Of a stretch of DNA of 53,760 bases, positions 1,943 to 45,890 are shown one piece after another. The notes under the pieces were generated by a model, which was given only the letters and a program-made list of their open reading frames with translations, was not told the DNA's origin and ran no database searches. The stretch spans positions 1-53,760 of the forward strand of contig CAJFUA010000016.1 in NCBI GenBank assembly GCA_904420085.1, read 5' to 3'. The DNA is from an uncultured Eubacterium sp. GTDB lineage: Bacteria; Bacillota; Clostridia; Lachnospirales; Lachnospiraceae. The stretch's first letter is position 1; each line of letters starts with the position of its first letter. The translations under genes were made by a program, and so were the position numbers.

Positions 1943-3859
1943 ATGGAAAACAATAGGAATAGAACCCCGGGGAACAATGGGGATCAGAACAACCAAAAGA
2001 AAAATCGGATTGCGGTAATTGTAATTACGTTAATTTTCGCGTTATTATTTACCACCATGAGTTCTTATTTTTTTGACTCAATGACAAAAAAAGAAATAAC
2101 ATATGATGTATTTATCAGTCTGCTGGACAGTGGACAGGTGGAGAGCGTAACCTTTGATTCCAATAAAATATATATTACGCCAAAAACAGAAAATAATGCA
2201 TTGATTAAAACCACATTTTGGACCACACAGCTCAACGACCCGGAACTGATTAATGATTTAAAGGACAAATATTCGGGCGTAACTTTTAAGGCGGAACAGG
2301 CAAGTGCTTCTTCCAGTATTTTACTGATTCTGTTAGAGTGGATTCTGCCGTTAATAATTTTCTGGTTCTTAATGATGTTTATCGTAAGGAAAGCTACCGG
2401 TGGAAAAGGCGGCGCCGGCGGCGTGTTCGGCGTAGGAAAGTCCAATGCAAAAGTATATATTCAAAAAGATACAGGGGTAACGTTCAAAGATGTTGCAGGT
2501 CAGGAAGAAGCCAAGGAATCAGTTGTGGAGATGGTTGATTTTCTCCATAATCCGGGCAAATATGCGGCCATCGGTGCAAAACTTCCGAAAGGAGCATTGC
2601 TGGTGGGACCTCCGGGAACCGGTAAGACCCTTCTTGCCAGAGCAGTGGCAGGGGAGGCGAAAGTTCCGTTTTTCTCATTGTCCGGCTCGGATTTTGTGGA
2701 AATGTTTGTAGGTGTAGGTGCATCCAGAGTGAGGGACTTATTTAAACAGGCAGAGGAGAATGCACCGTGTATCGTGTTTATTGACGAGATTGACTCCATC
2801 GGTAAGAGCCGTGATTCCAGATTTGGCGGCGGTAACGACGAAAGAGAGCAGACATTGAATGCCCTTTTGGCAGAGATGGATGGATTTGACCCGTCGAAGG
2901 GTATTATGATACTGGCGGCAACCAACAGACCGGAAGTGTTGGATCCGGCATTGCTGAGACCGGGACGTTTTGACAGAAGAGTCATTGTGGATACGCCTGA
3001 TTTCAAGGGAAGGCTTGATACTTTAAAAGTGCATTCCAAAGACGTGAAACTGGATGAGACGGTAGATTTGGAAGCCATTGCAAATATTACCAGCGGAGCA
3101 GTAGGTTCCGACCTTGCCAACATGGTTAATGAGGCAGCCATTAATGCTGTAAAATGCGGAAGAAAAGCCATATCTCAGGATGACTTAATGGAAGCGGTGG
3201 AAGTAGTTATCGCCGGAAAAGAAAAGAAAGACAGAATCCTCAGCAAAGAGGAGAAAAAAATTGTGGCATTCCACGAGGTAGGTCACGCTCTGGTTGCGGC
3301 AATTCAGAAAGATGCGGAGCCGGTACAAAAAATCACCATTGTGCCTAGAACCATGGGAAGTCTGGGATATGTGATTCAAGCGCCAGAGAAAGAAAAATAC
3401 CTGATGTCTCAGGATGAATTAAATGCAGAACTGGTAACTCTTTTGGCAGGCCGTGCATCGGAAGAGATAGTGTTTGATTCCATTACCACCGGGGCATCCA
3501 ATGATATGGAGAAAGCCACAGGCATTGCCCGCTCTATGATTGCCCAGTATGGTATGTCGGAAAAATTCGGACTGATGAGTCTGGAAAAGATAAACGACCC
3601 ATATCTTGGAAAGAATTCTCAGTTGAACTGTAGTGACAAAACCGCCACGGAAATTGAAGAGGAAGTGAAAATACTTCTGAAAGAAAAATATGAGGAGGCG
3701 AAGAAATTATTACAGGAAAACAGGGATAAACTGGATAAGATTGCAGGTTTCCTATATGAGAAAGAGACCATCACCGGGAAGGAGTTTATGGAATTATATA
3801 AACAGTGTGATGAGGAAGATGGAGAGTCTTCGGAAGAAACGCAGGAAAGTGATGCGTAA
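1943..3859 (+). CDS. ftsH: ATP-dependent zinc metalloprotease FtsH
   Basis: Membrane-bound AAA+ protease that extracts and degrades misassembled membrane proteins and regulatory proteins. 638 residues. Two N-terminal membrane segments (about 18-38 and 122-145) flank a short extracytoplasmic domain. The AAA+ module follows with Walker A GPPGTGKT, Walker B IVFIDEID and a second region of homology rich in RPGRFDRR. The M41 peptidase domain has the zinc motif HEVGH, where most FtsH proteins read HEAGH. The C-terminus is acidic. An upstream in-frame ATG exists at 1853, but the segment 1853-1942 is AT-rich and non-homologous. The start at 1943 has AAAGGAAA before it and gives the usual N-terminus, so I chose it. 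A strong terminator follows. Confidence 0.96.
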   Translation: MENNRNRTPGNNGDQNNQKKNRIAVIVITLIFALLFTTMSSYFFDSMTKKEITYDVFISLLDSGQVESVTFDSNKIYITPKTENNALIKTTFWTTQLNDPELINDLKDKYSGVTFKAEQASASSSILLILLEWILPLIIFWFLMMFIVRKATGGKGGAGGVFGVGKSNAKVYIQKDTGVTFKDVAGQEEAKESVVEMVDFLHNPGKYAAIGAKLPKGALLVGPPGTGKTLLARAVAGEAKVPFFSLSGSDFVEMFVGVGASRVRDLFKQAEENAPCIVFIDEIDSIGKSRDSRFGGGNDEREQTLNALLAEMDGFDPSKGIMILAATNRPEVLDPALLRPGRFDRRVIVDTPDFKGRLDTLKVHSKDVKLDETVDLEAIANITSGAVGSDLANMVNEAAINAVKCGRKAISQDDLMEAVEVVIAGKEKKDRILSKEEKKIVAFHEVGHALVAAIQKDAEPVQKITIVPRTMGSLGYVIQAPEKEKYLMSQDELNAELVTLLAGRASEEIVFDSITTGASNDMEKATGIARSMIAQYGMSEKFGLMSLEKINDPYLGKNSQLNCSDKTATEIEEEVKILLKEKYEEAKKLLQENRDKLDKIAGFLYEKETITGKEFMELYKQCDEEDGESSEETQESDA

Positions 3860-3901
3860 TCATACAATGTAAATTAAGGAACAGAATATTTTTCGATTTA
3901 T

Positions 3902-3946
3902 AAAAAGTGAAGGAGAAGGATGTAAAATCCTGCCTTCACTTTTTTT
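3902..3946 (+). terminator. Intrinsic terminator after ftsH
   Basis: AAAAAGTGAAGG pairs with CCTTCACTTTTT around a smaller inner AGGA/TCCT match, followed by a T-run of seven. It separates ftsH from the AT-rich unit that follows. Confidence 0.9.
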
Positions 3947-3985
3947 AATCATAGAAGAATTTGTTGTCGGGGTGAGGAAAAACTA

Positions 3986-4014
3986 TTGACTATATTTGCT
4001 ATAAATCATATAAT
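3986..4014 (+). promoter_or_regulatory. Promoter for the helveticin J-like operon
   Basis: TTGACT (3986-3991), a 17-bp spacer and TATAAT (4009-4014) lie 31 bases before the GTAAATG start region. This is a near-consensus sigma-A promoter placed just after the ftsH terminator, so the next two genes form an independent transcription unit. Confidence 0.75.
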
Positions 4015-4044
4015 TTTGATTATAAATATATAAATGGAGGGTAA

Positions 4045-5250
4045 ATGAATATGGTGAAAAAAATTATGAAAACTATGGGAGTAGTATTATTATCTGCTAC
4101 AATTACTTTTTCCTCGTCAACTATAAACAGAGCTGACGAAAAAATGGAATTGCCAGAGGTAGATATGTTTAATGAAAAAGTTGTTGAAGAAGGAAATTAT
4201 GAATTAAATTCGCAAATTGTATCTGATAATAAAATGAAATCAATTAATGAACAATGGATATCGGAATCATTATTACCAACAGCGTCAATGCTTTCATTAG
4301 CAACACCGGGAGCAAATAAAACAGGAAATACAAAAGCTGAATTGATATATACTGTTACAGGATTAAAGTATAGTAGTGCAATTCAAAATTTTTCTATTAC
4401 TGGAAGTTACATATATATAACTCAATTTGATAATTCGAATTCTACGATTTTATCTAGGTGTAAAATAACAGGAACCAAGTCGGCACAATATATGGATCAT
4501 ATGTTTTTAAGTGGATTTGGGCATGGAGAATCTTTAGCTTTAAGTAACTATAACAATAAAACATATTTTTATTTAGGAGCGGTGAATAATAGTAAAGCGA
4601 CTTACAAAGAAAATGGAGTTACAAAATATCCACAATGGTCTAAGCAGATAGCAAGAATTCAGTATCAAGCAGGAAAAACACTAAAAAGTAGTGATGTACC
4701 CAGATTTTCTTATTTAAATAGAGCAAATCCGTCAGGAGTGAGTAGGGGAAATGTATGGCGAAGCGCATGTGCTGTTACCAGTAAACAAATCGTATTTAGA
4801 ACACAATTCGAAAATGGAAATATACAGTATAGTTTTTTTCCAATTAGCAAAATGAACGCAGTTTTAAGTGAGGCTGAAAATAAGAGCAATAAGGAAGTAT
4901 CTTTTTCTAATAATACAACATTGCAAAAAATGTGTACAAATTCTATTATTCAAAAAGATGCAAATAATAATATTGTTATGCCGAATGGAAATTTTCAAGG
5001 AATGGATTTGAGCGAAGTTGGTAACGTTTATCTGACCGGAGGTTCAAGCAAAAATACTTATAACAGAATAGCAAGAATGGGCAGCGATGGTACATACAAA
5101 TTTAGATGGGATGTGACTGGATTAGGTCAATATACAACAGAAATAGAAGGAATTAAGTGTAGAGGCAATGATGTTGTATTTGCATTGGAACCCATACCAT
5201 CAAAAATTACAAGTACGAAAAAAATTTATAAAGCACCAGTTTCCAATTAA
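4045..5250 (+). CDS. Secreted helveticin J-like protein (class III bacteriocin family)
   Basis: 401 residues. The N-terminus (KKIMK, then a hydrophobic stretch to about residue 30) is a Sec signal peptide. A polar segment to about residue 90 follows, then a domain that I match from memory to helveticin J of Lactobacillus helveticus. Shared stretches are KQIAR followed about 20 residues later by PRFSYLNRA (helveticin: PRLSYLNRA), a GHGESL/GHTQTW-type segment, FQGMDLSEVGNVYLTGG (helveticin: IQGYDLDNDGNIYISS), and a C-terminal TEIEGI...KKIY (helveticin: SEVESI...NEIYEL). Helveticin J is a large heat-labile antibacterial protein; its fold is probably beta-rich. The Sec signal is a difference from helveticin J. 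GGAGG precedes ATG 4045 by 4 bases and ATG 4051 by 10, so the start could be either. Codon use is much more AT-rich than in the neighbours, suggesting transfer. The antibacterial function is inferred from family membership only. Confidence 0.8.
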   Translation: MNMVKKIMKTMGVVLLSATITFSSSTINRADEKMELPEVDMFNEKVVEEGNYELNSQIVSDNKMKSINEQWISESLLPTASMLSLATPGANKTGNTKAELIYTVTGLKYSSAIQNFSITGSYIYITQFDNSNSTILSRCKITGTKSAQYMDHMFLSGFGHGESLALSNYNNKTYFYLGAVNNSKATYKENGVTKYPQWSKQIARIQYQAGKTLKSSDVPRFSYLNRANPSGVSRGNVWRSACAVTSKQIVFRTQFENGNIQYSFFPISKMNAVLSEAENKSNKEVSFSNNTTLQKMCTNSIIQKDANNNIVMPNGNFQGMDLSEVGNVYLTGGSSKNTYNRIARMGSDGTYKFRWDVTGLGQYTTEIEGIKCRGNDVVFALEPIPSKITSTKKIYKAPVSN

Positions 5251-5291
5251 AAACAAAATATACATAAATGGGTTTATATGGAGGTATGAAA

Positions 5292-6548
5292 ATGAAGAAG
5301 AAAAGTCTCGTTTTTATAATGGCACTTATGTGTCTGGTTATCGGTTGTGCAATAAATGCAACAATTGTAAACGCAAAGACAAATCCTAATGTTATCGAAA
5401 GGAAAACAGATGATATTACAGTTGGAAAATATGAAATCACATTGGGAAAGTATGATAGCTCGGCAAAGGTCGGGCGTCCAATCTTTGTAAAAGGAAAAAA
5501 CACGGTTAAGAAAAAGATTGGATATGCCCGAGGAGGCGTGTATTATACATATAACAAAAGCATAGTATATGTTGACAAGGCGAATATATTATGCAAAACA
5601 AATATTGTCACGAAAAAAACAAAGAAAATCATGAAATGTAAGGAATACACCATAGCTGACAGTTTTTACAATGGAAATATGATTTTATACAGTGATGATT
5701 CATTGAAAACAGTCAATGTGAAAAATAATATTGTTACGGAACTTGTAAAGAATCCGTGTATTCAGTCTTTCAGTTTTCCGGCAGAAATTTTATTTGATGG
5801 TAATAAAATCTATTATGGAAAAGAAAAAGAAGGAAAATCTTCACTGGTACAGTTAAATACAGTAAATAAGCAGATAAAAGAAATACCTCTTGAAAAGGGG
5901 CAGTCTGTAATTAAGATTGTTAAGAACGCTTCGGATATTTATTGGAGTACAGTTACCAATGACCTGCAGGGAACAGGGTCGGAAAACCAGCGATATGATG
6001 TGATGAAAACTTCCCGAGATACTTTTGATAAATATCAGACAGTTGTTGAAGAGGCAAAATTAATCAATGTGGTATCCGGCAGTGTTATATATGAATATAT
6101 ACCGGATAAGGGAAATCATCAATGCAAAGCTGTCAGACAGTATCAAATTTCATCCCAAAAAACAAAGACGCTGTTAAAGGCAGAAAAATTTCCTTTTGTA
6201 CCATATATGTTTATGGCAGAGAAACAAGGAAAAGATATCCGATTAACTCTGATTTCTCAATCGGACGAAAGCGCTCCGGATAAGGTGGTTTATCAGATTA
6301 AAAAAGGAAAGAAGGCAGTCATTACCGAGATATATACTTCGAACAGAATAATTCCGAAAAATTATTTTAAAGGGATGAAAAATATTAAAAAAATTTATTT
6401 CCAAAGAGCAGTTAAGAAACTGCATAAGCAAAGTCTGAAAGGAATTAAGCGGAAGACAATTATATATGTGAAGAGAAAAGATTACCGGCAGACAGTAAAG
6501 AAAATCCGAAAAATAAACAGGAAAGTAAGAGTCAGAGTGATGGCATAG
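5292..6548 (+). CDS. Exported beta-propeller-like protein with a leucine-rich-repeat-like tail, partner of the helveticin-like gene
   Basis: 418 residues from ATG 5292, chosen because GGAGG (5280-5284) stands seven bases before it; in-frame ATGs at 5268 and 5286 are badly spaced. The N-terminus has KKK then a hydrophobic core ending VIGC, which could be a lipobox, or a plain Sec signal cut after VNA. The body consists of repeated short beta-type segments (VYYTYNKSIVYVDK, NMILYSDDSLKTVNVK, NKIYYGKEKEG), like the propeller regions of DUF5050-type proteins. The last 75 residues (FKGMKNIKKIYF, LKGIKRKTIIYV) look like the end of a BspA-type leucine-rich-repeat domain and are very basic. It lies 41 bases downstream of the helveticin-like gene with no terminator between, so it is co-transcribed. 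It could be an accessory or self-protection protein; I have no direct evidence for either. Confidence 0.7.
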   Translation: MKKKSLVFIMALMCLVIGCAINATIVNAKTNPNVIERKTDDITVGKYEITLGKYDSSAKVGRPIFVKGKNTVKKKIGYARGGVYYTYNKSIVYVDKANILCKTNIVTKKTKKIMKCKEYTIADSFYNGNMILYSDDSLKTVNVKNNIVTELVKNPCIQSFSFPAEILFDGNKIYYGKEKEGKSSLVQLNTVNKQIKEIPLEKGQSVIKIVKNASDIYWSTVTNDLQGTGSENQRYDVMKTSRDTFDKYQTVVEEAKLINVVSGSVIYEYIPDKGNHQCKAVRQYQISSQKTKTLLKAEKFPFVPYMFMAEKQGKDIRLTLISQSDESAPDKVVYQIKKGKKAVITEIYTSNRIIPKNYFKGMKNIKKIYFQRAVKKLHKQSLKGIKRKTIIYVKRKDYRQTVKKIRKINRKVRVRVMA

Positions 6549-6553
6549 GAAAA

Positions 6554-6592
6554 GCGGAGAGAACGATTTTAAAATCGTCTCTCTGTTTTTTT
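6554..6592 (+). terminator. Intrinsic terminator closing the helveticin-like operon
   Basis: GAGAGAACGATTTT pairs fully with AAAATCGTCTCTC, and GTTTTTTT follows. Confidence 0.9.
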
Positions 6593-6707
6593 GCAAAAGC
6601 TGTGCTTCGGAATATTTATCTTCGTAAACGGATAGGAGGCAGCCAACTTGATAATCATAATAAAACAGTAAATGACTGGAAACTTATAAAAATATACAGA
6701 ATAGAAC

Positions 6708-6736
6708 TTGAAAAAAATAAACACATAGATGATAAT
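6708..6736 (+). promoter_or_regulatory. Putative uvrC promoter
   Basis: TTGAAA (6708-6713), a 17-bp spacer and GATAAT (6731-6736) lie 34 bases before the uvrC start. The preceding stretch 6593-6707 shows no convincing gene. Confidence 0.5.
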
Positions 6737-6770
6737 TGAATAAAACAGATTAAAAAGTTTGGAAAGAAAC

Positions 6771-8690
6771 ATGAGTAATTTTAATTTTTCAGAGGAATTA
6801 AAAAAGATGCCCCAGACCCCGGGAGTTTATCTGATGCATGACAGCAGGGATGATGTAATCTATGTGGGAAAGGCAGTAAATTTAAAGAGACGTGTCAGTT
6901 CCTATTTCAGACAGAGCACCAAAAAGAGTTTGAAGATTGAATCCATGGTATCTAATGTGTCCAGATTTGAATATATTCTTACAGACTCAGAACTGGAGGC
7001 TCTAATTTTAGAGTGCAATTTAATCAAAGAGTACCGTCCCAAATATAATACCATGCTGATGGATGACAAGACCTATCCTTACGTGATGGTCACCACCAGC
7101 GAGGATTATCCGCGGATTGTCATGGCACGCCGCATGAAAAAGGATGGGAATAAATATTTCGGACCTTTTACCAGCGGAGGCGCGGTCAGGGACACCATTG
7201 AACTGTTGCAGAAAATGTTTCAGATTCGAAACTGCCGGAAATCCATCATTGCCGGACAGAATGAAAGCAGTTCGGTGCAAGGAAAAAATACGAAAAAAAA
7301 TCAGGTTCCCACTGTCAACGGCAGACCCTGTCTGTATTATCACATGGGATTGTGTCAGGGAGCCTGCCAGGGATATGTCGGCAAAGAAGAGTACGGAGAA
7401 AATGTTCAAAAGGCTATCAGATTTTTAGAGGGAAATTATCGTGATACATTAAAAGAACTGGAAGAAAAAATGCAGACAGCATCGGCGCAGATGGATTTTG
7501 AGAAAGCCATGGAGTATCGTGATTTGATCCGCAGTATCAACCATGTGGCAGGTAATCAGAAAATTACCACCCATAAGTTTGAGGACAGGGATATTATTGC
7601 CTATGCGGAAGAAGGAAATGATGCGGTGGTACAGGTGTTTTTTGTTCGAAACGGAAAACTGATTGGCAGGGAGCATTTTTATCTGACTACCGTGCCGGGA
7701 GATACCGGAAAAGATATTATTACCAGTTTTATTAAGCAGTATTATATTGGAACGCCCTTTATTCCCCATCAGCTTCTGGTGCAGGAAGAAGTGGAGGATC
7801 CGGAACTGTTATCCCAGATGCTCAGCCGTAATCAGAATTATACGGTGAAAATTGTGAACCCTAAGAAAGGAAGCAAGGAAAAACTGGTAGAACTGGCGGC
7901 GAAGAATGCCAGAAACCTTTTAGAGCAGAACAAAGAAAAGTATCGCCAGGAACAGAAAAAGACGGTGGGAGCGGTTCATGAAATTGAAGAATTGACAGGG
8001 ATAGAGGGGATTCACAGGATGGAATCCTACGATATTTCCAATACCAACGGATATGAGTCGGTGGCATCCATGATTGTGTATGAGGACGGCAGACCGAAAA
8101 GGAACAATTACCGCAAGTTTAAGATTAAAACAGTGCAGGGACCGGATGACTATGCCAGCATGGAGGAAGTATTGACACGGCGTTTTAAACATGGTCTGGA
8201 AGAACGGCATAAACTGGACATGGAAGACGGGGATTATGAGCTGGGAAGTTTCAGCAAATTTCCGGATATTATTATGATGGACGGAGGAAAAGGTCAGGTA
8301 AATGTTGCCTTAAAGGTTTTGGAGAAACTGGGAATTAATATTCCGGTCTGTGGCATGGTAAAAGATGACCACCATAATACCAGAGGGCTTTATTATAACA
8401 ATCAGGAGATTCCAATCGATACCCGCTCGGAAGGATTCAAACTGATTACCAGAATACAGGACGAGACCCACCGCTTTGCAATTACCTATCACAGAAGCCT
8501 GAGAGGAAAAAAAGAAGTGAAATCCATTCTGGATGATATACCGGGAGTGGGACCGTCCAGAAGAAAGGCGTTAATGCGGTATTTTAAATCCATTGAAGCA
8601 ATCAGGGAAGCATCGGTGGAGGAATTGAAAAAAGTGGATTCCGTCACGGAGAATGTGGCAAAAAATATATACAAATATTTTCACAAATGA
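6771..8690 (+). CDS. uvrC: Excinuclease ABC subunit C
   Basis: Dual-incision nuclease of nucleotide excision repair; it acts on UvrB-DNA complexes. 639 residues from ATG 6771, which follows GGAAAG at a good distance (an in-frame TTG at 6759 is less likely). The N-terminal GIY-YIG domain (PGVYLM ... VIYVGKA, about 12-95) makes the 3' incision. A UVR motif that contacts UvrB (MDFEKAMEYRDLIRSI, about 240-260) follows. The RNase H-like endonuclease domain contains ESYDISN and DGGKGQV. Two C-terminal helix-hairpin-helix motifs (DDIPGVGPSRRKALM) bind DNA. An insertion rich in Lys and Gln near residues 165-180 is lineage-specific. It heads the run leading to hprK. Confidence 0.96.
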   Translation: MSNFNFSEELKKMPQTPGVYLMHDSRDDVIYVGKAVNLKRRVSSYFRQSTKKSLKIESMVSNVSRFEYILTDSELEALILECNLIKEYRPKYNTMLMDDKTYPYVMVTTSEDYPRIVMARRMKKDGNKYFGPFTSGGAVRDTIELLQKMFQIRNCRKSIIAGQNESSSVQGKNTKKNQVPTVNGRPCLYYHMGLCQGACQGYVGKEEYGENVQKAIRFLEGNYRDTLKELEEKMQTASAQMDFEKAMEYRDLIRSINHVAGNQKITTHKFEDRDIIAYAEEGNDAVVQVFFVRNGKLIGREHFYLTTVPGDTGKDIITSFIKQYYIGTPFIPHQLLVQEEVEDPELLSQMLSRNQNYTVKIVNPKKGSKEKLVELAAKNARNLLEQNKEKYRQEQKKTVGAVHEIEELTGIEGIHRMESYDISNTNGYESVASMIVYEDGRPKRNNYRKFKIKTVQGPDDYASMEEVLTRRFKHGLEERHKLDMEDGDYELGSFSKFPDIIMMDGGKGQVNVALKVLEKLGINIPVCGMVKDDHHNTRGLYYNNQEIPIDTRSEGFKLITRIQDETHRFAITYHRSLRGKKEVKSILDDIPGVGPSRRKALMRYFKSIEAIREASVEELKKVDSVTENVAKNIYKYFHK

Positions 8691-14820: not shown

Positions 14821-17295
14821 ATGAAAAGAAAATTTTTCAGGCAGATGTTAGCTTCAATACTGGCAGTTGCTCTTTTGGTAACCGGGATGAGTGTGATGAA
14901 AACACAGGAAACAAAGGCAGCCACAACATTGGGCAGTGCGGCAGATTACACGGTAACAGCAGAAGAGGTTTCAGCAAGTTTGACAAAGTTGACGTTCACT
15001 GCCGCAAATTATGCGTCATATGTCATTGTTCATTATAAAGTCAATGACGGTGACCAGCAGAATATAGGTATGAACGGCAGTGACAAATTGTTTGAGATTA
15101 ATATTGACGGACTTAATAAGGGCGACAGAATCACATGCTCTTTTACATATAATAAAGGCGGACTTCAATATGATTCCGCAGAGATGACTTATGTAACCGG
15201 ACAGCAGACCGGTACGAACACAAGTATTCCGGCACCTTTCGGTCTGGTAGTAAACAGTCCGAGAAACAATGCAGTCAGCGTTGTATGGGGACGGGGAGAT
15301 ATTGATTTATACAATGTTTATGTTGATAATACCGTTGTAGCCCACGGCGTAGGCTGCGGATATTACGAATTTGATAATGTCGCTTCAGGAAACCATACGG
15401 TAAGCGTTACAACTGTTTCAGGTTCAAGCGAATCGGCAAAAACATCACTGGATGTAACCGTGTCCGGTCAGTCGGAGGTACAGGCAACTACAAAGCCGGA
15501 GACCGGTGTTGTGTACATTTATCAGGATATTAATTATGGCGGAAGAGTAGCAGCATTCAATGAAGGAAGATATAACCTTGCAGCTTTGGAAGCAAAAGGA
15601 TTCCGAAACGACGACCTTTCTTCACTGAAAGTACAGAGCGGTTATGAGGCAGTGCTTTATGCTGATGACAATTTCCAGGGGGAATCAAGAACCATTACAG
15701 AAGATACTTCATGGATCGGATTAGACTTTAATGATGTAATGTCATCCATGATTGTGCAGAAAAAAACAGAACCTGCCACAACTCAGCCGACTACGCAGAC
15801 AACCACGCAGGCTTCTGATGTTGACAAAAATCTTGCAAAGCCGTTTGGCATGGTAGTAAGCAATCCGTCAGCCGGAACCATCGGTGTTGTTTGGGGCAGA
15901 GGAGACATTGATTCATACAATGTATATATTGACGGAACAAAAGTAGCGTCAAAAGTAGGATGTGCATACTATACATATTCAGGATATGGAGCAGGAAACC
16001 ATACGGTGGGAATTGCTACCGTTTCAGGTAATAAAGAGTCGGAACAGACAACCATGACAGTCAATGTGGCAACAGGCGGACAGCAGCAGACAACACAGGC
16101 TGCAACACAGCCGACCACACAACAGACAACGGTCAATACAGATATCGGAACAGAGATACCACAGCTTAGAACAGATATTCCTGTCAGAAGCGACAGAATG
16201 TTCTTACAGTTGAATAACAAGACTAACGGCAAGTATAAAGACAGTGAAATTTACTGGACGGTTATCGGAAGGGATAAAGACCATCAGATCTGCTATCTGG
16301 ATGCACAGGGAAATTTAATTAAGGCAAGCACGGCGTTAAATACAGTGGAAAAGAATGGCAGAAAATGCGCGGATATAGCCCACTCCTTAGCGGAAGCAAG
16401 TTATGTATATCTGCCGGACATTGAATCCGGAAGAATGTACTTGAGTTATGGAGAACCGGTTTACATAACATTCAACATTGACGGAGACGGAAATGTAGGA
16501 TATGCCGGACCGGATTTGAATAATCCGACAGACCCGAACAGTGACGTATTATTTGAATTTGCAGAGTTCACAGTTACAAATAAAGAATACTGGGGAAATA
16601 CAACCAGAGTTGACTTCTTCAGCTTCCCGGTTGTAACCAGATTAGTAGGTCAGGGTGGATATGACAACAGACCGGGCGACTATGATGTTTATGATAAAAC
16701 TGTGGGTGACATTGGAACAAGAGATGAAATCTTTGCAGCATACAAGGCATCTGCACCGTCTATCTGGCAGACGCTGGTAAATGATGACAGAATCATGGCT
16801 CCATGTAAGAGTACCTTTAATGAAGGACAGATATATGGCAATTACTTTGATGCATATATTAATGAATTCTGGAACAAATATTCCAATGAGACACTGGTAT
16901 TCCAGTGTGATGCCGGAACATTCCGGGGAAGAGTAAACGGCGACCACATGACCTTTACAAAGGATGGAGACGGTGGAACATATACGGTTTACAAACCGAC
17001 TACACAGGATGTATTGGAAGGAAAAGGAAACTTCAACAGAGGAAACTCCACAGAACTGGTTATCGAGGCACAGCTTTGTGCGGCATTTAACAGAGGTGTG
17101 GCTACCGACCCTGCAAATTACCAGAATCCAAGTGCATATTATAAGAACAGCACTTATAATTATTACTCAGCATTCTTACATCAGCATTCAGTAAACAATT
17201 TAGCTTACGGATTCTGTTATGATGATGTAAATGACCAGAGTACACTTCTTCACTATACAAATCCTACAGCACTTGTGTTGGATTTGAAGTGGTAA
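14821..17295 (+). CDS. Secreted multimodular GH64 beta-1,3-glucanase
   Basis: 824 residues. Signal peptide 1-33 (cleavage after TKA). Modules in order: a CBM56-like beta-1,3-glucan-binding domain (about 38-128, ending SFTYNKGGLQYDSAEMTYV); an FN3-like module (about 138-212); a beta/gamma-crystallin domain (about 226-315, with VYIYQDINYGGR and LYADDNFQGE); a Thr-rich linker; a second FN3-like module (about 338-410) closely repeating the first (VVWGRGDIDxYNVY in both); a TTQ-rich linker; and a C-terminal GH64 catalytic domain (about 445-824). The latter shows the FEFAEF and TRVDFFSFPV segments carrying the likely catalytic Glu and Asp. GH64 enzymes release laminaripentaose-type products from beta-1,3-glucan. 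AGGAGG precedes the ATG. Assigned by motif recognition; the N-terminal CBM call is less certain than the GH64 call. Confidence 0.85.
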   Translation: MKRKFFRQMLASILAVALLVTGMSVMKTQETKAATTLGSAADYTVTAEEVSASLTKLTFTAANYASYVIVHYKVNDGDQQNIGMNGSDKLFEINIDGLNKGDRITCSFTYNKGGLQYDSAEMTYVTGQQTGTNTSIPAPFGLVVNSPRNNAVSVVWGRGDIDLYNVYVDNTVVAHGVGCGYYEFDNVASGNHTVSVTTVSGSSESAKTSLDVTVSGQSEVQATTKPETGVVYIYQDINYGGRVAAFNEGRYNLAALEAKGFRNDDLSSLKVQSGYEAVLYADDNFQGESRTITEDTSWIGLDFNDVMSSMIVQKKTEPATTQPTTQTTTQASDVDKNLAKPFGMVVSNPSAGTIGVVWGRGDIDSYNVYIDGTKVASKVGCAYYTYSGYGAGNHTVGIATVSGNKESEQTTMTVNVATGGQQQTTQAATQPTTQQTTVNTDIGTEIPQLRTDIPVRSDRMFLQLNNKTNGKYKDSEIYWTVIGRDKDHQICYLDAQGNLIKASTALNTVEKNGRKCADIAHSLAEASYVYLPDIESGRMYLSYGEPVYITFNIDGDGNVGYAGPDLNNPTDPNSDVLFEFAEFTVTNKEYWGNTTRVDFFSFPVVTRLVGQGGYDNRPGDYDVYDKTVGDIGTRDEIFAAYKASAPSIWQTLVNDDRIMAPCKSTFNEGQIYGNYFDAYINEFWNKYSNETLVFQCDAGTFRGRVNGDHMTFTKDGDGGTYTVYKPTTQDVLEGKGNFNRGNSTELVIEAQLCAAFNRGVATDPANYQNPSAYYKNSTYNYYSAFLHQHSVNNLAYGFCYDDVNDQSTLLHYTNPTALVLDLKW

Positions 17296-44033: not shown

Positions 44034-45890
44034 GGAATCAACTGGCTTCCGGTGGGAGAATATCTGACTTACTATGGCATGAATCAGCAGCGGTGTGGGG
44101 AGATTTATCAGGGACTGTTAAATGACACGGAGACAGCCATTCAAAAATCCCAACTGGCTGCCAGAAATGAAGGAAAAACTGAGGAAGAAATTGAGGAAAT
44201 CCGGACAAAGTACAAAACGCCGGACAACGGATGGCAGCATATCACATGGAGTTATCTGTCCATGACCGATCCTGTGCTGGCATTGGAAAAATTTGACACA
44301 AACTGGTCTCAGGTGCAAAAGGGAGATCAGGCAAATACATATTGGTATATTCACAGTATGATGCAGTCAGGATATAAGACGGAAGATATTTTTGCCACCG
44401 GAGATATTGCCGCCACAGTCTATTACAATAAAGGCACAAACAAATATACGGCAATGGCATGGAATCCCACAGATAAAGAACAGTCCGTGACTTACTATAG
44501 AGATGGGAAAAAAACAGGTACAGCCTATGTAAATTCCCATTCTCTGGTTCGGTTTGAGATTCCTTTGCGTGATGATTTTGTTATTCGTCAGGCGGCCGCC
44601 CCTCAATTTACGGTAAAAGGTTTTTATGATGACAGCGTTCAAAAAAATGTACAGGGCAGGGTGACTTATGATGATAACCAGTATGTGGAAATTACCTGTG
44701 CAGATTCGTCAGCAGTCATTCATTACACAGTGGATGGAACTGTACCTACAGAGGAATCTCCTGTCTATACAGAACCGATTATGGTGTCGGATAACATGGT
44801 TATCAAGACTTATACATGTAAAGAAGGATACATTGATTCCGGGTACACATCTCTTGACATTACCATTCAGGGAACAGAGATAACCGACAGTGAGAATGTG
44901 GCGCTGGGAAAACCGGTGGCAGTGTCCGGCGAAGAAGGAAAGACCACCTTGGGTTCTTATATTACAGACGGAGATGAGAAAACCAGATGGTCTTCCAAAT
45001 TTAATGATGAACAGTGGTGTTACGTGGATTTGGAAGAAATATATCCGATAAATACCGTAACCATCAACTGGCAGAATTCCTATGCCGAGGAATATGAAAT
45101 ACAGGTGTCCGTGGATGGAGAAGAATGGAAAACAGTTGCCGTTGTATCCAATAGCCAGTCCGGTGTAAAAACCACCACCTTTGACGCTGTCTATGCCAGA
45201 TATGTTAAAATGCAGGGGGTAAAGAGACATACGATATACGGATATTCTATATGGGAGATGGAAATCTATACGGCGAAGGAAGCGGATCCGCCACAAATTA
45301 CAGTGGAAGAATTGAAGAATGGAAAAAATCGCATCCGAATGTCTACCACAGTGAAAGGTGCGCTTATTAAATATACGTTGGATGGAACGGAACCTGCGGA
45401 AGATTCATTCTCCTACACGGGACCGATAGAAGTGGGAGATGCCGTAATTTCGGCAGTCACTTATAGGAAGGGAATGGTTCTCTCCAAAGTGACTTCCCAA
45501 AGGGTAACAGAACGCCCGCCGGAGATAACGGATGTTACGGAAACAAAACAGACGGAGGACGTCAAAGGTACGGAGGCTGTAAAGAGTGAAAAGAAAACAG
45601 CAGTCAGCCGGACGAAAGCAAAAAAAGTTGTCGTGGGGAGAGCAAAGATAAAGCGGATTCGAAGGTATCAGAGGGGAAGAAAGGTAAAAGTCTATTTAAG
45701 AAAACTGAAAGGTGTCCGCAGTTACCAGATAAAAATTTCTACTTCAAAGAAATTTAAAAAGAAACGGACCAGAACCAGATATGTCAGAAAAACCAGATTT
45801 ATTATGACCGGATTAAAAAAGAAAAAAACATACTATATGAAAGTGCGGGCGTGCGTAATCCGCAGCGGAAAGAGATATTTTGGCAAATGA
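44034..45890 (+). pseudogene. Remnant of a secreted GH81 endo-beta-1,3-glucanase
   Basis: The frame opens inside a GH81 motif: GINWLPVGEYLTYYG is encoded from 44034, upstream of the only GTG (44052), and an in-frame stop lies at 44007. Conserved GH81 sequence follows (DNGWQHITWSYLSMTDP) but most of the catalytic domain is missing. The rest is intact for over 600 codons: a chitobiase-C-like domain (about 195-280), an F5/8 type C (discoidin/CBM32-like) domain (about 285-415, NVALGKPVAVSG to IWEMEIY), a second chitobiase-C-like domain, a Lys/Thr linker and a basic FN3-like end. Upstream, AAGGAG at 43925 and codons for VKNKLKVFLLF suggest relics of the original ribosome site and signal peptide. 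No ribosome binding site fits GTG 44052. Confidence 0.8.

What the first reader, a model, noticed from the sequence alone, without database searches (positions are those of the whole stretch)
3986..5250. Exported helveticin J-like bacteriocin candidate in a Lachnospiraceae-type genome
The protein shares PRFSYLNRA, KQIAR, the GHGESL region and the FQGMDLS...NVYLTGG region with helveticin J, known mainly from lactobacilli, but adds a Sec signal peptide. It has its own near-consensus promoter and is markedly more AT-rich than its neighbours, which suggests horizontal transfer. An antibacterial role is inference.
Basis: partly seen in the sequence, partly recalled or inferred. Interest (0 to 1): 0.72.

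Follow-up and report, generated by a model that had tools for sequence, protein, structure and literature searches.

The report
Exported helveticin-like phage-receptor-type propeller
A gut-type bacterium exports a helveticin-like protein whose predicted shape and key residues match the domain that some phages use to grip bacterial cell walls, which gives a concrete, testable idea of how helveticin-type bacteriocins may work.

Summary
The ORF at 4045-5250 is real, has a near-consensus promoter and passes Pfam Helveticin_J (29.6 bits, cut-off 25.5). Three things go further. (1) Foldseek ranks wall-teichoic-acid receptor-binding proteins of phages phi11, 80alpha and NF5 first for the predicted structure; a Lentilactobacillus helveticin gives the same, P68 added. 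Profile comparison agrees (E 1.3e-9); direct sequence searches do not find the link. Of three residues proposed to line the phi11 GlcNAc cavity, two are identical here (Q114, Q318); the third is E162. (2) In 6 of 8 Lachnospiraceae loci an exported LRR_5 protein follows directly (the window is one of the two exceptions). In 7 of 9 Lactobacillaceae plasmids read, an S-layer-type protein is the neighbour. (3) The pair sits between ftsH and uvrC; 14 of 14 assessable relatives lack it there. My reading: an exported cell-wall-polymer binder carried as a two-gene cassette, perhaps antagonistic. Binding, killing and the partner's role are inferred, not shown.

The parts
3898..3946 (+). Hairpin plus T-run behind ftsH, terminator-like
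   Evidence: 3898-3950 folds at -21.2 kcal/mol, z -6.5; the consensus terminator scan listed none in 3800-6800
3986..4014 (+). Sigma-70-like promoter TTGACT-17-TATAAT
   Evidence: 11 of 12 positions, best of 29 hits in the stretch
4045..5250 (+). Exported helveticin-like protein, 401 aa
   Evidence: ORF; Helveticin_J 29.6 bits, cut-off 25.5
4045..4140 (+). Signal-peptide-like N-terminus (end approximate)
   Evidence: by eye from the sequence; low-confidence region 8-79 in the model
4297..5247 (+). Beta-propeller domain, residues 85-401
   Evidence: AlphaFold2 model, 222 residues at pLDDT 90 or more; Foldseek top seven chains are phage receptor-binding proteins
4384..4386 (+). Codon of Q114, aligned with phi11 Gln165
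   Evidence: hhalign; Q in 34 of 35 rows of A4 and 7 of 7 phage rows
4528..4530 (+). Codon of E162, aligned with phi11 Thr211
   Evidence: hhalign; Q in 32 and E in 3 of 35 rows, T in 8 of 8 phage rows
4996..4998 (+). Codon of Q318, aligned with phi11 Gln330
   Evidence: hhalign; Q in 35 of 35 rows and 8 of 8 phage rows
5292..6548 (+). Second gene of the unit: exported protein of 418 aa, lipobox-like VIGC by eye, C-terminus weakly LRR_5-like
   Evidence: ORF (longer start 5268); gap 41 bp; last 66 aa: E 7.4e-4 to an LRR_5 ORF of G005, LRR_5 14.2 bits, below the cut-off of 27.7
6553..6592 (+). Hairpin plus T-run behind the second gene, terminator-like
   Evidence: 6545-6592 folds at -22.1 kcal/mol, z -6.2; not listed by the scan

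Best explanation
The gene encodes a secreted beta-propeller of the same fold, and by profile the same superfamily, as the platform domain with which staphylococcal and related phages bind glycosylated wall teichoic acid. I think the exported protein binds a glycopolymer of Gram-positive cell walls in the central cavity (Q114, E162, Q318 and neighbours). It is made from its own promoter together with an exported partner, as a two-gene cassette inserted between ftsH and uvrC. The likeliest use is interaction with other Gram-positive cells at the surface (antagonism as reported for helveticins, or attachment). Shown: family membership, predicted fold, conserved residues, gene order, empty site. 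Inferred: ligand, surface retention by the partner, antagonism.
For: Helveticin_J match. Foldseek, window model: ranks 1-7 are phi11, 80alpha and NF5 receptor-binding proteins, E 1.3e-12 to 5.6e-10, next 2.7e-7. Lentilactobacillus helveticin model: ranks 1-9 are phi11, 80alpha, NF5 and P68, E 1.1e-11 to 7.7e-8, next 8.1e-6. hhalign of 35 helveticin-like rows against 8 phage propellers: probability 96.4%, E 1.3e-9; own rerun score 65.9 against at most 20.2 in 60 column shuffles and 12.0 for the reversed profile. The Paenibacillus homologue passes Pfam Phage_RBD_prop, 27.0 bits, cut-off 23.7. Cavity residues of phi11 from passages of PMC4901313 and their conservation. LRR_5 partner in 6 of 8 Lachnospiraceae loci, gaps 15-76 bp over the 8 loci. 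SLAP or SlpA-domain neighbour in 7 of 9 Lactobacillaceae plasmid records. Empty site in 14 of 14 assessable relatives. Helveticin-M is reported to impair the cell wall (passages of PMC8538875).
Against: The window protein itself stays below the Phage_RBD_prop cut-off (15.5 bits, E 0.013). The A4 profile finds no phage receptor-binding protein among PDB sequences up to E 5, PHROGs gives no such family, tblastn in 50,697 phage records finds nothing, viral contigs nothing. Lactobacillaceae helveticins alone against the phage profile: probability 4.6%, E 0.0088, though 0 of 60 shuffles reach that score. TM-scores are moderate (0.48-0.52 of the query for the window model). In the viral model library the P68/TagC-like match is only rank 19. 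GlcNAc in the phi11 cavity was modelled, not seen in crystals. The window's own partner has no clear LRR_5 match, no relative in the 22 other genomes of its genus and no significant similarity to the G305 partner.
Confidence: 0.6

Rival explanations
1. A classical diffusible class III bacteriocin: the protein kills related bacteria by an unknown activity on wall or membrane, and the second gene gives immunity.
For: Family name; in vitro activity of several helveticin producers (passages of PMC5471241); patchy presence and insertion.
Against: No lytic or pore-forming domain found. In Paenibacillus the gene has no constant partner in the two Paenibacillus loci printed (L026 and L035) and is well conserved across species (61-97% to the query), which is unusual for a bacteriocin. 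Partners are exported LRR_5 or S-layer-type proteins, not a typical immunity protein.
Confidence: 0.25
2. A surface lectin or adhesin that serves the producer's own envelope or attachment, without antagonism.
For: In 4 of 5 Oscillospiraceae-titled loci and in one of two 'Clostridia bacterium' loci the domain opens ORFs of 913-1581 aa; one of these five has pseudomurein-binding repeats (E 3.1e-22). LRR_5 and SLAP neighbours are surface proteins.
Against: Reported antibacterial activity of the lactobacillus members. The other four large ORFs have no wall-binding domain over its cut-off.
Confidence: 0.35
3. An enzyme on a propeller scaffold, for example of the glutaminyl-cyclase or glycosidase type.
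For: Foldseek lists papaya glutaminyl cyclase 2faw (E 5.4e-6) and a glycoside hydrolase 5mul (E 9.8e-6); H160, R204, R220, R239, E366 and E368 do not vary in the rows with letters there.
Against: Phage receptor-binding proteins score better by about four orders of magnitude and share the same invariant H, QG and E-x-E-G.
Confidence: 0.1
4. A recent relic of a phage tail gene.
For: Same fold and profile as tail receptor-binding proteins.
Against: Signal peptide, no stem or tower domain, no phage genes beside it, long branch of 2.96 between phage and bacterial rows, no phage record matched.
Confidence: 0.04

Closest known systems
Helveticin J family (Pfam PF17312; class III bacteriocin or bacteriolysin)
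   Same: Pfam match over the cut-off, predicted fold and top structure matches shared with a Lentilactobacillus member, profile against Lactobacillaceae members E 3.5e-57
   Different: Signal peptide and about 80 extra N-terminal residues; LRR_5-type or other partner instead of an S-layer-type neighbour; 24-25% identity to Lactobacillus plasmid homologues in the matched part of four of the six records
Phage receptor-binding platform propeller (Pfam PF21311; phi11 gp45, 80alpha, P68, NF5)
   Same: Fold, profile, invariant GH, QG and E-x-E-G, two of three proposed cavity residues
   Different: Secreted single protein without stem and tower; window protein below the Pfam cut-off; E162 in place of Thr211
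Umbrella toxin lectins of Streptomyces (UmbA propellers)
   Same: Secreted antibacterial particles that recognise wall glycopolymers by propeller lectins, by passages of PMC13274773
   Different: Seen only as an analogy; no sequence or fold comparison with UmbA was made here
BspA-type LRR_5 surface proteins
   Same: Partner of the helveticin-like gene in 6 of 8 Lachnospiraceae loci
   Different: In the window only a weak LRR_5-like C-terminus

Membership tests
Helveticin J family (PF17312) | Profile match over the curated cut-off | tested here: met
   29.6 bits against 25.5
Helveticin J family (PF17312) | Same fold as a classical member | tested here: met
   Both models rank the same phage propellers first; the two models were not superposed on each other
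Helveticin J family (PF17312) | No signal peptide, as in the Lactobacillus members | tested here: not met
   Signal-like N-terminus here against none in P0002 and P0004, by eye; this separates a subgroup and does not define the family
Helveticin J family (PF17312) | Antibacterial activity | not testable with these tools
   needs purified protein
Phage receptor-binding platform propeller (PF21311) | Profile match over the curated cut-off | tested here: not met
   window 15.5 bits against 23.7; the Paenibacillus homologue passes with 27.0
Phage receptor-binding platform propeller (PF21311) | Propeller fold | tested here: met
   Foldseek ranks 1-7; blades were not counted by a tool
Phage receptor-binding platform propeller (PF21311) | Cavity residues Gln165, Thr211, Gln330 | tested here: inconclusive
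   two identical, one E
Phage receptor-binding platform propeller (PF21311) | Part of a phage tail: stem, tower, phage neighbours | tested here: not met
   flanked by ftsH and uvrC, no further domain
Phage receptor-binding platform propeller (PF21311) | Binding of wall teichoic acid | not testable with these tools
   needs a binding assay
LRR_5 partner cassette | Second gene with LRR_5 over the cut-off | tested here: not met
   window partner: no LRR_5 match listed for the whole protein, 14.2 bits for its last 66 aa against 27.7

The most novel reading that the evidence does not exclude
Helveticin-class bacteriocins are free-standing bacterial versions of the propeller with which phages recognise wall teichoic acid. 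Bacteria secrete them to mark or disturb the walls of particular competitors, each lineage pairing the propeller with its own type of surface protein (S-layer type in Lactobacillus, LRR_5 in Lachnospiraceae, fusion in Oscillospiraceae).
Probability: 0.45. Interest if true: 0.8.

Novelty: new variant of a known kind. Interest (0 to 1): 0.6.

Why it matters
How helveticin-type proteins act is open: a 2021 review reports wall and membrane damage for helveticin-M and an undescribed immunity mechanism (passages), and a 2017 survey says that no function other than narrow-spectrum activity has been ascribed (passages). A link to phage wall-teichoic-acid binders names a ligand class, a pocket and residues to test, and would explain narrow host range by glycopolymer type. 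No paper holding 'helveticin' with 'propeller', with 'receptor binding protein' or 'helveticin-like' with 'crystal structure' was found in the library searched; this covers open-licence PMC papers only.

Tried and rejected
Sequence-only routes to the phage link failed: phmmer and profile search of PDB sequences, PHROGs, tblastn in phages with three queries, viral contigs (30 pattern matches, none confirmed). NCBIfam gave nothing for the window proteins; weak NCBIfam hits for the large clostridial ORFs were far below their cut-offs and ignored.

Low GC as proof of transfer was rejected, because the homologues elsewhere are AT-rich too. A recent transfer from a named donor was not found: the tree puts the window protein beside the Oscillospiraceae-Paenibacillus branch with weak support (87/56), highest identity 40%. 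The three Pfam hits to the second gene (AceES-2, CENP-T_C, SOXp) are below the cut-offs and were taken as chance. Common origin of the window partner and the G305 partner was rejected for lack of evidence (best E 0.96; 19% in a forced alignment). The consensus terminator scan found none although two stable hairpins with T-runs are present.

Dropped rows: G020 (one TAA) and the N-terminal part of G012 (one TGA) were not used as whole proteins in alignments or tree; the open piece of G012 was. L003 (fused remnant) was left out of the alignments. A4 took 34 of the 74 loci, A5 took 20.

Full report
OBSERVATION. The window is contig 16 of a 2.57 Mb draft genome. ORF 4045-5250 encodes 401 aa with a signal-like N-terminus (by eye). 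A promoter of 11 of 12 consensus positions lies at 3986-4014. The protein passes Helveticin_J. Among 39 genes of the window it has the lowest GC3 and the most deviant codon use; the next gene is AT-rich with ordinary codon use. Gene names such as ftsH and uvrC are recalled from the sequences.

SURROUNDINGS. A second exported ORF (5292-6548) follows after 41 bp. Stable hairpins with T-runs lie behind ftsH and behind the second gene, though the terminator scan lists neither. The two genes thus look like one transcription unit. uvrC was found in 20 of 22 other genomes of the genus. In 14 of these 20 loci ftsH lies in the held stretch next to uvrC, and no helveticin or partner match lies between; in two of the 14 (L114, L115) other ORFs sit there. 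The remaining six could not be judged, because ftsH was not in the 1.5 kb held. The pair is therefore an insertion, or was lost many times.

DISTRIBUTION. In 98 relatives, own genome included, 5 have a homologue, two of them with one stop in the frame (G012, G020). PF17312 is found in 4 of 397 family genomes and in 1 of 398 of the phylum, the own one. A scan of one genome per species with a Paenibacillus-led alignment gave 74 loci, 53 titled Paenibacillus; others are Laceyella, Cohnella, Neobacillus, Ruminiclostridium, Clostridia, Oscillospiraceae, Verrucomicrobia-titled MAGs, Lachnospiraceae and Lentilactobacillus. The patterns favour this branch, so the count is no census. Most Paenibacillus rows printed show a hydrophobic N-terminus with an AxA-like site; this was not counted with a predictor. 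The three Lentilactobacillus rows do not.

TWO-GENE ARRANGEMENT. I examined 8 Lachnospiraceae loci: window, G000:C52, G010, G012, G019, G020, G305, G353. In 6 of 8 the next gene on the strand is an exported LRR_5 protein (E 7.6e-21 to 8.2e-63). The exceptions are the window and G305. A further remnant in the own genome (G000:C72) has the start of a helveticin-like protein fused in frame to an LRR_5 protein. LRR_5 is common in the genus: all 23 genomes have it, with 2 to 52 matching stretches each, 23 in the own genome, so perhaps one gene in a hundred. Six of eight immediate neighbours is far above that, by estimate rather than by a formal test. The window's partner has no LRR_5 match as a whole. 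Its last 66 aa match an LRR_5 ORF of G005 at E 7.4e-4 and LRR_5 at 14.2 bits, below the cut-off. In Lactobacillaceae plasmids, 7 of the 9 records found with P0002 have a SLAP-domain or SlpA-domain gene next to the helveticin gene. Two of the seven are near-identical plasmids. A flanking S-layer protein was already reported for one bee isolate (passages of PMC4015849). In 4 of 5 Oscillospiraceae-titled loci and 1 of 2 'Clostridia bacterium' loci the domain opens an ORF of 913-1581 aa, one with pseudomurein-binding repeats. L091 runs to the end of its stretch.

FOLD. AlphaFold2 gave mean pLDDT 80.0 and pTM 0.76, residues 8-79 under 50 and most of 85-401 over 90. Foldseek against PDB: ranks 1-7 are phi11, 80alpha and NF5 receptor-binding proteins (E 1.3e-12 to 5.6e-10, query TM 0.48-0.52); the best other match is a WD40 domain at 2.7e-7. 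A Lentilactobacillus helveticin (Helveticin_J E 1.6e-19), folded with an alignment of 21 rows, gave mean pLDDT 84.8. Its ranks 1-9 are phi11, 80alpha, NF5 and P68. In the viral model library the first named P68/TagC-like match is rank 19, E 2.8e-4.

SEQUENCE LINK. hhalign of A4 (35 rows) with A6 (8 phage propellers): 96.4%, E 1.3e-9 over 235 columns. My rerun: score 65.9, E 1.3e-8; reversed phage profile 12.0; 60 column shuffles at most 20.2. Lactobacillaceae helveticins alone reach only 4.6%, E 0.0088, above all 60 shuffles; they join A4 at E 3.5e-57. The Paenibacillus homologue passes Phage_RBD_prop but shows no Helveticin_J match at E 0.1 or better; the window protein does the reverse. The exported group thus bridges the two families. 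Against this, plain sequence searches do not reach the phage proteins.

POCKET. The phi11 structure paper (passages of PMC4901313) proposes a GlcNAc cavity with Gln165, Thr211, Gln330 and two Met; soaking failed, so it is a model. hhalign puts them over Q114, E162 and Q318. In A4, Q114 is Q in 34 of 35, position 162 is Q in 32 and E in 3, Q318 in 35 of 35; H160 in 35 of 35; E366, E368, G369 in 33 of 33 with letters. In the phage rows the counterparts do not vary. The window is one of three rows with E at 162, which may mean a different sugar or a weaker site.

MECHANISM. Shown: family, predicted fold, conserved residues, gene order, empty site. Inferred: the protein binds a wall glycopolymer, the partner keeps or displays it at the surface or protects the producer, and the target is another Gram-positive cell. 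Antagonism fits the lactobacillus reports. Conservation in Paenibacillus and the fused forms fit attachment as well. I hold binding likelier than killing.

NOVELTY. The protein is a new variant of a known family. The relation of that family to phage receptor-binding propellers, and its pairing with surface proteins across lineages, I did not find in print in the searches. Of the 22 papers only 12 were listed, and one of these was seen in passages.

Noticed in passing
L024 5104-5421, L108 4951-5268, L025 837-1154: An LLH-family holin gene lies near signal-less helveticin genes on three Lactobacillus plasmids, two of them near-identical; it may release helveticin without a signal peptide.
   Followed up: no
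window 14821-17295: Exported GH64 beta-1,3-glucanase with CBM_56 and a crystallin/I36-like domain.
   Followed up: partly
window 44052-45890: ORF starting with GTG with F5/8 type C and chitobiase C-terminal domains; its N-terminus looks like the cut end of a longer glycan-acting protein (by eye).
   Followed up: partly
G000:C72:26049-27530 (L003): Remnant of a third cassette: the start of a helveticin-like gene fused in frame to an LRR_5 gene.
   Followed up: partly
L114 and L115, between ftsH and uvrC: Other ORFs occupy the ftsH-uvrC gap in two relatives (a signal-like protein of 354 aa without Pfam match in L115), so the site may be an insertion hot spot.
   Followed up: partly
G353:C43:6968-8850 (L009): Two helveticin-like genes in tandem before one LRR_5 gene.
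   Followed up: no
G000:C52 (L018 5349-7175): A second LRR_5 ORF follows the LRR_5 partner of the paralogous cassette.
   Followed up: no
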